From Cetobacterium somerae (GTDB taxonomy: Bacteria > Fusobacteriota > Fusobacteriia > Fusobacteriales > Fusobacteriaceae): a DNA stretch of 64,000 nt. The notes under the pieces are model-generated. The model searched no databases. It saw only the letters and a list, made by a program, of their open reading frames with translations, and had not been told where the DNA came from. Shown piece by piece: positions 10,768 to 24,013 of the stretch (the stretch's first letter is position 1; each line of letters opens with the position of its first letter). Position numbers and translations under genes: made by a program. Location: positions 1-64,000 of the forward strand of contig NZ_CP092522.1 of assembly GCF_022430525.1 (NCBI RefSeq), given 5' to 3'.

Positions 10768-10889
10768 TCTTTTTTATAATAAAAGTCAATAATTGAAAGC
10801 TATTAAAAAAAATGTTTCGAAAAATAAAAAAATGTTTTCCTTCAATCTTTGAATAAAATATGATAGAATTCTTTTAGAAAAATTATAAA

Positions 10890-10954
10890 ACTTATATATA
10901 TTTGGGATATGGCCAAAAGTTTCTACACCAAACCGTAAATTTGGTACTATAAGT
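10890..10954 (+). ncRNA. Purine (guanine-type) riboswitch aptamer
   Basis: P1 is ACTTATA (10890-10896) with TATAAGT (10948-10954). P2 is TTTGG/CCAAA around GATATGG, P3 is ACCAAA/TTTGGT around CCGTAAA, and the core junction contains GTTTCTAC. The two seven-base loops match the kissing-loop consensus. The specificity base in the 3' junction (ACTAT) is C, which in this family means guanine/hypoxanthine rather than adenine. A -10-like TATGATAGAAT lies about 25 bases upstream. A terminator follows at 10968-11000. Confidence 0.93.
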
Positions 10955-10967
10955 AAAAGTTAACTTA

Positions 10968-11000
10968 AAACAGTAAGCTTTTGCTTGCTGTTTATTTTTT
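10968..11000 (+). terminator. Expression-platform terminator of the guanine riboswitch
   Basis: CAGTAAGC (10971-10978) and GCTTGCTG (10983-10990) form a stem flanked by AAA/TTT and followed by a T-run ending at 11001. It lies between the aptamer and the SD of the amidohydrolase gene, consistent with ligand-induced termination. Confidence 0.88.
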
Positions 11001-17267: not shown

Positions 17268-17296
17268 AAATAATCAAAAAATAATTTACTTTAATA

Positions 17297-17447
17297 ACCG
17301 TTTGAGCTTTAGCTTCATAGGGCGATGAAATTGCATTATTCTATGCCTTGAATTCGACATAGACTGTTAACCAACTCATAGTGTCTCCACTATTTCGCGG
17401 CAGCAACCCTTATCCCTATGGTAGCCTCACCTACCGATTTTTCTATC
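17297..17447 (-). ncRNA. M-box (ykoK-type) magnesium riboswitch
   Basis: The minus strand shows the conserved blocks GGTAGGTGAGGCTACC, GTTGCTGCCG, GGAGACACTATG, GTTAACAG, ATGTCGA and, at the 3' end, CCTATGAAGCTAAAGCTC in the right order and spacing for the M-box. Mg2+ binding favours the downstream terminator and so represses the Mg2+ transporter gene. Transcription should begin near 17448. Confidence 0.94.
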
Positions 17448-23667: not shown

Positions 23668-23784
23668 CTAATATTTTTGACTTGATGTTTTTGATGCTCC
23701 TGCTGTTTCCATATCTAATGAAGAACATGAACTTAATCCAAAAATTAATGCTCCTAAAATTAAAAATACTCCCAAAGTTTTCAT
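23668..23784 (-). CDS. Small lipoprotein, 38 aa precursor
   Basis: ATG at 23784 has an excellent SD (TTAGGAGG, about 6 bases upstream). The peptide is a complete lipoprotein signal (MKTLGVFLILGALIFGLSSC, Cys20) followed by only 18 residues (SSLDMETAG...), and the frame stops at TAG 23670-23668, 24 bases before a terminator. Very small lipoproteins of this form (entericidin-like or lysis-protein-like) are known in Gram-negative bacteria. No homologue is recognised here. A -10-like TATAAT about 50 bases upstream suggests its own promoter. Confidence 0.78.
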   Translation of the reverse strand: MKTLGVFLILGALIFGLSSCSSLDMETAGASKTSSQKY

Positions 23785-23862
23785 AAAAACCTCCTAATTT
23801 ATATTTCATTATAAGTTTATATTCTTATTATTATAGTTTTTCCTTTTATATTTAAAAGATGA

Positions 23863-23902
23863 AAATAAAAAACCTTCCTTTTGGGGAAAAGGAAGGTTTT
23901 TA
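23863..23902 (-). terminator. Strong intrinsic terminator closing the candidate sRNA
   Basis: AAAACCTTCCTTTT and AAAAGGAAGGTTTT form a 14-bp perfect stem with a CCCC loop, followed on the minus strand by TTTATTTT. It lies in an intergenic region that does not directly follow any minus-strand gene. Confidence 0.9.
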
Positions 23903-23978
23903 TAACACGGGGGAGTGTTAAAATTAAAAGATTTAAATAAATTTTTGGGGGGTATTAAATTTACTTAATCATCGGTTT
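23865..23978 (-). ncRNA. Candidate small RNA with three C-rich loops
   Basis: An independent promoter (23985-24013) and a strong terminator (23863-23902) bracket about 114 bases without a usable ORF. The RNA would carry a run of seven C near 23946-23952, a hairpin AACAC-UCCCCC-GUGUU (about 23921-23904), and the terminator hairpin with a CCCC loop. C-rich unpaired loops that bind the G-rich Shine-Dalgarno region are a known design of bacterial regulatory RNAs. The nearby peptide-transport and peptidase genes have SD regions TTTGGGGAGGG and TTTTGGGGAGG complementary to these loops. It could instead be a leader of the small lipoprotein gene 80 bases further on. Confidence 0.7.
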
Positions 23979-23984
23979 CAATTA

Positions 23985-24013
23985 ATAATACCATATCCGT
24001 AAATCTATGTCAA
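23985..24013 (-). promoter_or_regulatory. Promoter of the candidate sRNA
   Basis: TTGACA (24013-24008), a 17-bp spacer and TATTAT (23990-23985) on the minus strand: a near-consensus sigma70 promoter with no gene starting within 200 bases. Confidence 0.88.

What the first reader, a model, noticed from the sequence alone, without database searches (positions are those of the whole stretch)
23865..24013. Candidate C-rich sRNA with three C-loops matching neighbouring SD sequences
An orphan promoter (TTGACA-17-TATTAT) and a 14-bp-stem terminator delimit about 114 bases with a C7 run, a UCCCCC hairpin loop and a CCCC terminator loop, in a genome otherwise very poor in C. The SD regions of the M42 peptidase (TTTTGGGGAGG) and peptide-binding protein (TTTGGGGAGGG) next door, and of the PTS EIIC (TTTGGGGGA), are complementary to CCCCAAAA and UCCCCC in the RNA. 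Loops of this kind are used by Gram-positive and some Gram-negative sRNAs to block translation.
Basis: partly seen in the sequence, partly recalled or inferred. Interest (0 to 1): 0.8.

Follow-up and report, generated by a model that had tools for sequence, protein, structure and literature searches.

The report
New multicopy C-rich small RNA family
A fish-gut bacterium (Cetobacterium) carries five near-identical copies of a previously undescribed small RNA gene, conserved in related bacteria, whose C-rich loops probably switch off messenger RNAs by covering their ribosome-binding sites, though the real targets are still unknown.

Summary
In detail: on the minus strand a TTGACA-17-TATTAT promoter and a strong terminator delimit an RNA of about 118 nt with three C-rich loops (the first run is C6, not C7). 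It is not a lone element. The same RNA occurs five times in this genome, in 11 of 12 genomes of its genus (Cetobacterium), and in three further groups: one containing Cetobacterium sp. 2A, termite-gut Fusobacteriaceae, and 3 of 12 genomes of a third genus. It is absent from the rest of the order. The core is 99% identical between orthologues whose neighbouring coding sequence is about 72% identical. Helix 1 shows compensatory changes, and the hairpin AACACUCCCCCGUGUU is invariant in all but one copy. Downstream genes differ and are often convergent, so it is a free-standing gene, not a leader. Rfam has no match. The most likely function is a trans-acting antisense sRNA that blocks G-rich Shine-Dalgarno sites, working like Listeria LhrC1-5 and Fusobacterium FoxI/FoxJ without detectable homology to them. 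The neighbouring-gene targets are not supported beyond chance: 12% of translation starts carry GGGG, pairing is no better than with shuffled seeds, and the neighbourhood is conserved in only one other species. Targets and the inducing signal remain open.

The parts
24008..24013 (-). -35 element TTGACA
   Evidence: present at the same distance in all 37 promoters aligned
23985..23990 (-). -10 element TATTAT (extended, TG before it)
   Evidence: aligned
23862..23979 (-). the sRNA, about 118 nt, predicted +1 at G23979 (GAAACCGA) to the U tract
   Evidence: fold z -6.5; covariance-model hit 23904-23979; five paralogues in the genome
23930..23970 (-). helix 1 with 12-17-nt C-rich loop ACCCCCCAAAAA (candidate seed 1)
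   Evidence: MFE; compensatory changes
23902..23921 (-). hairpin 2, AACAC-UCCCCC-GUGUU (candidate seed 2)
   Evidence: MFE; invariant in every copy but one from Cetobacterium to termite-gut Fusobacteriaceae
23868..23901 (-). intrinsic terminator, 15 pairs, loop CCCC, then U tract
   Evidence: stem sequence differs between paralogues and species but stays paired
23668..23784 (-). 38-aa putative lipoprotein downstream; not part of the RNA gene
   Evidence: ORF; absent next to the other copies

Best explanation
This is one of five paralogous genes for a free-standing, trans-acting regulatory RNA of about 115-123 nt. A sigma-70-type promoter drives it and an intrinsic terminator ends it. Two hairpins, and in Cetobacterium also the terminator loop, display C-rich single-stranded loops separated by a U-rich linker. 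The loops most likely seed antisense pairing with G-rich Shine-Dalgarno regions, and the U-rich linker can continue the pairing over the start codon, so the ribosome is kept off a set of mRNAs. Shown by sequence: gene anatomy, multiplicity, conservation, conserved structure, independence from neighbours. Inferred: expression, SD occlusion, and a target set possibly rich in peptide uptake and amino-acid genes. Different conserved promoter spacers in the paralogue groups suggest they answer different signals (inference).
For: Five copies in the genome; 11 of 12 genus genomes and 22 of 61 relatives by DNA match; covariance model finds it in four genera and nowhere else in the order. Core identity 99.1% between orthologues against 71.9% for the adjacent lrgB and 53.7% for far-upstream DNA. 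Helix 1: 5 pairs with changes on both sides against 1.2 in shuffles, 98% of cells paired (alignment fitted to the model). Conserved -35, -10 and +1. Downstream genes convergent or unrelated. FoxI and FoxJ of F. nucleatum use C stretches to repress mRNAs (PMC11005410), and LhrC4 uses a CU-rich loop against an SD (PMC5880928). Loops are unpaired in all five folds examined.
Against: No expression data. Seeds pair with translation starts no better than shuffled seeds: 10/60 and 27/60 shuffles as good; for pairs conserved with G006, 24/100 and 16/100. The peptide-binding-protein enrichment (6/16 against 44/399, p = 0.007) is discovery-biased: held-out members give only 2/11. Genome G067, with no detectable copy, has GGGG at 7/18 of the same genes. 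Invariance of the hairpin 2 stem as well as its loop could mean protein recognition instead.
Confidence: 0.7

Rival explanations
1. The RNA is a decoy for an RNA-binding protein that recognises the C-rich hairpins. Several copies titrate it, as CsrB-type RNAs titrate CsrA.
For: Multiple copies; near-invariant hairpin 2 including its stem; repeated C-loops; no target enrichment found.
Against: No such C-binding protein is known to me in Fusobacteriota. Only two or three motifs per RNA, against many in CsrB. One natural variant (G005) lost hairpin 2 and keeps loop 1.
Confidence: 0.15
2. It is a cis-acting attenuated leader of the downstream 38-aa lipoprotein gene.
For: In the window the lipoprotein ORF starts about 77 nt after the U tract on the same strand.
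Against: The same RNA elsewhere precedes convergent genes (lrgB; the gene at L003 102-351 downstream) or unrelated ones. The lipoprotein is not next to the other copies. The RNA is 99% conserved while its neighbours change.
Confidence: 0.03
3. The copies are a dispersed non-functional repeat or mobile element.
For: Class A copies lie at different places in different species. One genome has a tandem pair (G010). One copy has a transposase-like ORF nearby (L002).
Against: Conservation starts at +1 and ends at the hairpins. Terminator stems change with pairing kept. Two loci are syntenic across the genus, one also in the genus of Cetobacterium sp. 2A. Core identity exceeds adjacent coding DNA.
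Confidence: 0.03

Closest known systems
LhrC1-5 sRNAs of Listeria monocytogenes
   Same: Multicopy sibling sRNAs, about five per genome, with CU- or C-rich loops shown to pair with AG-rich Shine-Dalgarno regions; targets include oppA (PMC5880928).
   Different: No Rfam match of any kind at gathering level, no LhrC match up to E = 5; different phylum. LhrC is LisR-controlled; no LisR link was tested here. Targets of the present RNA are unproven.
FoxI and FoxJ sRNAs of Fusobacterium nucleatum
   Same: Same phylum; C-stretch seed, in a loop for FoxJ; represses envelope mRNAs at the translation start (PMC11005410).
   Different: Those depend on sigma-E and are described in F. nucleatum and close relatives; foxJ lies upstream of ylmH. 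The present genes have TTGACA/TATTAT-type promoters, lie elsewhere, and gave no credible match in genus g7.
RsaE and pneumococcal csRNA families (recalled from memory)
   Same: C-rich motifs thought to target SD regions; csRNAs are also multicopy.
   Different: No Rfam match to them. No shared sequence known to me.

Membership tests
LhrC family | Sequence and structure match to the Rfam model | tested here: not met
   No LhrC match in the window at gathering level or in five copies up to E = 5; presence of an LhrC model in Rfam is recalled
LhrC family | Multicopy with C- or CU-rich loops | tested here: met
   Five copies, unpaired C-rich loops; shared architecture, not homology
LhrC family | Loop pairs with target SD and represses translation | not testable with these tools
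   Needs mutants and reporters; in silico pairing not above shuffles
FoxI/FoxJ | Sigma-E-type promoter | tested here: inconclusive
   Promoters match the sigma-70 consensus TTGACA/TATTAT or TATACT; sigma-E response not assayed
FoxI/FoxJ | foxJ synteny upstream of ylmH | tested here: not met
   The window copy lies between the 407-aa membrane-protein ORF and the lipoprotein ORF; flanking ORFs of the other copies differ and none was recognised as ylmH
FoxI/FoxJ | Sequence homology | tested here: inconclusive
   No credible match in seven genomes of g7; FoxI/FoxJ sequences were not at hand and g7 is only inferred to be the F. nucleatum genus
C-loop antisense sRNA (functional kind) | Own promoter, terminator, accessible conserved C-rich seed | tested here: met
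Cis-acting leader or riboswitch | Conserved co-directional downstream gene | tested here: not met
   Downstream genes differ and are often convergent

The most novel reading that the evidence does not exclude
The five RNAs are a redundant titration device for an undescribed C-binding RNA-binding protein of Fusobacteriaceae, each copy fed by a different promoter signal; the invariant AACACUCCCCCGUGUU hairpin would be the protein site.
Probability: 0.12. Interest if true: 0.75.

Novelty: new member of a known kind. Interest (0 to 1): 0.52.

Why it matters
It adds a conserved, undescribed sRNA family, absent from Rfam 15 and from the open papers searched, to a phylum where few sRNAs are characterised. 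It occurs in Cetobacterium, a gut genus of fish, and in related genera. With up to five copies and an ultra-conserved hairpin it is a good entry point to RNA regulation in Fusobacteriota, and it would parallel LhrC in a distant phylum, suggesting repeated evolution of multicopy C-loop sRNAs in AT-rich genomes.

Tried and rejected
Neighbour-gene targets: rejected as special, because the neighbourhood is conserved only in G009. Exact long target GGGGGAGTG: 8 sites in the genome, five in the RNA genes themselves and three at no translation start. TTTTGGGG: 79 sites, mostly inside coding sequence. Peptide-binding-protein theme: p = 0.007 but discovery-biased. Two-species conserved pairing: not above shuffles. 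Weak matches in other genera (L022-L028, L216-L230): chance AT-rich sequence on inspection. Viral-contig match: hairpin alone, chance. Small protein: the C, A and U runs vary in length between copies, which would break any reading frame.

Full report
What is there. On the minus strand a TTGACA-17-TATTAT promoter (24013-23985) and a 15-pair terminator (23901-23868) bound an RNA of about 118 nt. The promoter scan as a whole finds no more sites than shuffles (40 against 38.5), but this is one of only two 11-of-12 matches in 6 kb; terminators are enriched (8 against 1.3). The RNA folds at -28.1 kcal/mol against -10.2 for shuffles, z = -6.5. The first C run is six long, not seven.

It is a family. 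The whole genome holds five copies. They fall into class A (three copies, GAAACCGATGATTAAGTAAATTTAATACCCCCC...) and class B (two copies, GAGACCGAATTTGATTGAATAGATCTATATACCCCCC...). Among 61 genomes, 22 have a DNA match, including 11 of 12 in the genus; the weakest of these matches, in other genera, are chance. A covariance model finds the RNA in 19 of 96 genomes of the order: the genus (11 of 12; the miss, G001, is an 82%-complete assembly), g10 (2 of 2), g11 (3 of 3) and g13 (3 of 12). A broader model finds nothing credible in the others. Named records identify the genus as Cetobacterium, g10 as including Cetobacterium sp. 2A, and g11 as Fusobacteriaceae MAGs, from termite guts as I infer from isolate names. 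That g13 is the F. varium/ulcerans group and g7 the F. nucleatum genus is my inference from genome size.

It is conserved as an RNA. Between orthologues of the copy beside lrgB the core is 99.1% identical, adjacent lrgB 71.9%, far-upstream DNA 53.7% (a simple pairwise measure). Conservation starts at the predicted +1 and the -35/-10 elements are kept in all 37 promoters aligned. Helix 1 has compensatory changes: 5 pairs changed on both sides against 1.2 in shuffles (the alignment was fitted to the model, but by eye G-C to A-U between classes and two flips in L080 are clear). Hairpin 2, AACACUCCCCCGUGUU, is invariant across genera, so it offers no covariation; one copy (G005) has lost it while keeping loop 1. 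Terminator stems differ in sequence between copies and stay paired.

It is free-standing. The lrgB-linked copy is syntenic in most Cetobacterium genomes and in g10, with lrgB convergent; another copy faces a convergent 83-aa gene; the window copy alone, with its counterpart in G009, sits between the 407-aa membrane protein (gltS-like, by my reading) and the small lipoprotein. In G017 (g7) the same small gene is followed directly by what reads as the lrgB end, without the RNA. In the three g13 genomes that have it, the RNA follows a DJ-1-like gene downstream of that same small gene; in six other g13 genomes the spot is empty. Rfam has no match. The paper searches found no description, but only open papers are held, and the founding F. 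nucleatum sRNA study was not available.

How it likely works. Two C-rich loops joined by a U-rich linker are the textbook layout of an SD-blocking sRNA. In F. nucleatum, FoxI and FoxJ use C stretches this way (PMC11005410); in Listeria, LhrC4 uses a CU-rich loop on an SD, and oppA is an LhrC target (PMC5880928). I could not show the targets. Of 404 translation starts sampled, 48 carry GGGG; the loops pair no better than shuffled versions, also when pairing must be conserved in G006. Peptide-binding proteins looked enriched (6 of 16 against 44 of 399, p = 0.007), but four of the six were in the sample that suggested the idea; the other eleven give two. The orthologues keep the G run in several cases, yet so does G067, which lacks the RNA. 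The target theme is therefore a lead only.

Verdict. A real, undescribed, multicopy sRNA family: about 0.95. Acting by C-loop antisense pairing: about 0.7. The window neighbours as its particular targets: not supported.

Noticed in passing
window 17290-17445 (-) and 10872-10969 (+): An M-box (magnesium) riboswitch and a purine riboswitch, both well above Rfam gathering scores.
   Followed up: no
L021/L112 (genome G005), minus strand of the locus centre: Natural variant of the RNA that kept helix 1 and loop 1 but lost hairpin 2 and gained a different terminator.
   Followed up: partly
L009 (genome G010) 1521-2009: Two tandem copies of the RNA, each with its own promoter, 354 bases apart.
   Followed up: no
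L218 (genome G076, genus g7), locus centre: Possible unrelated short C-rich transcript: TTGACA-like promoter followed by a terminator hairpin with loop UCCCCCCAAAA.
   Followed up: no
promoters of the lrgB-linked copies (e.g. L005, L016, L043): GTTC/GTAC motifs near -52 and in the -35/-10 spacer change together between species, as an operator might; class A copies instead share CGGATATGG in the spacer.
   Followed up: partly
G020:C3:102928-102962 (L047): A translation start (AAGGGGGAGTGATCAAATGAAAAGATTTAAA) complementary over about 35 nt to the linker and hairpin 2 of the RNA, in a genome that has the RNA.
   Followed up: no
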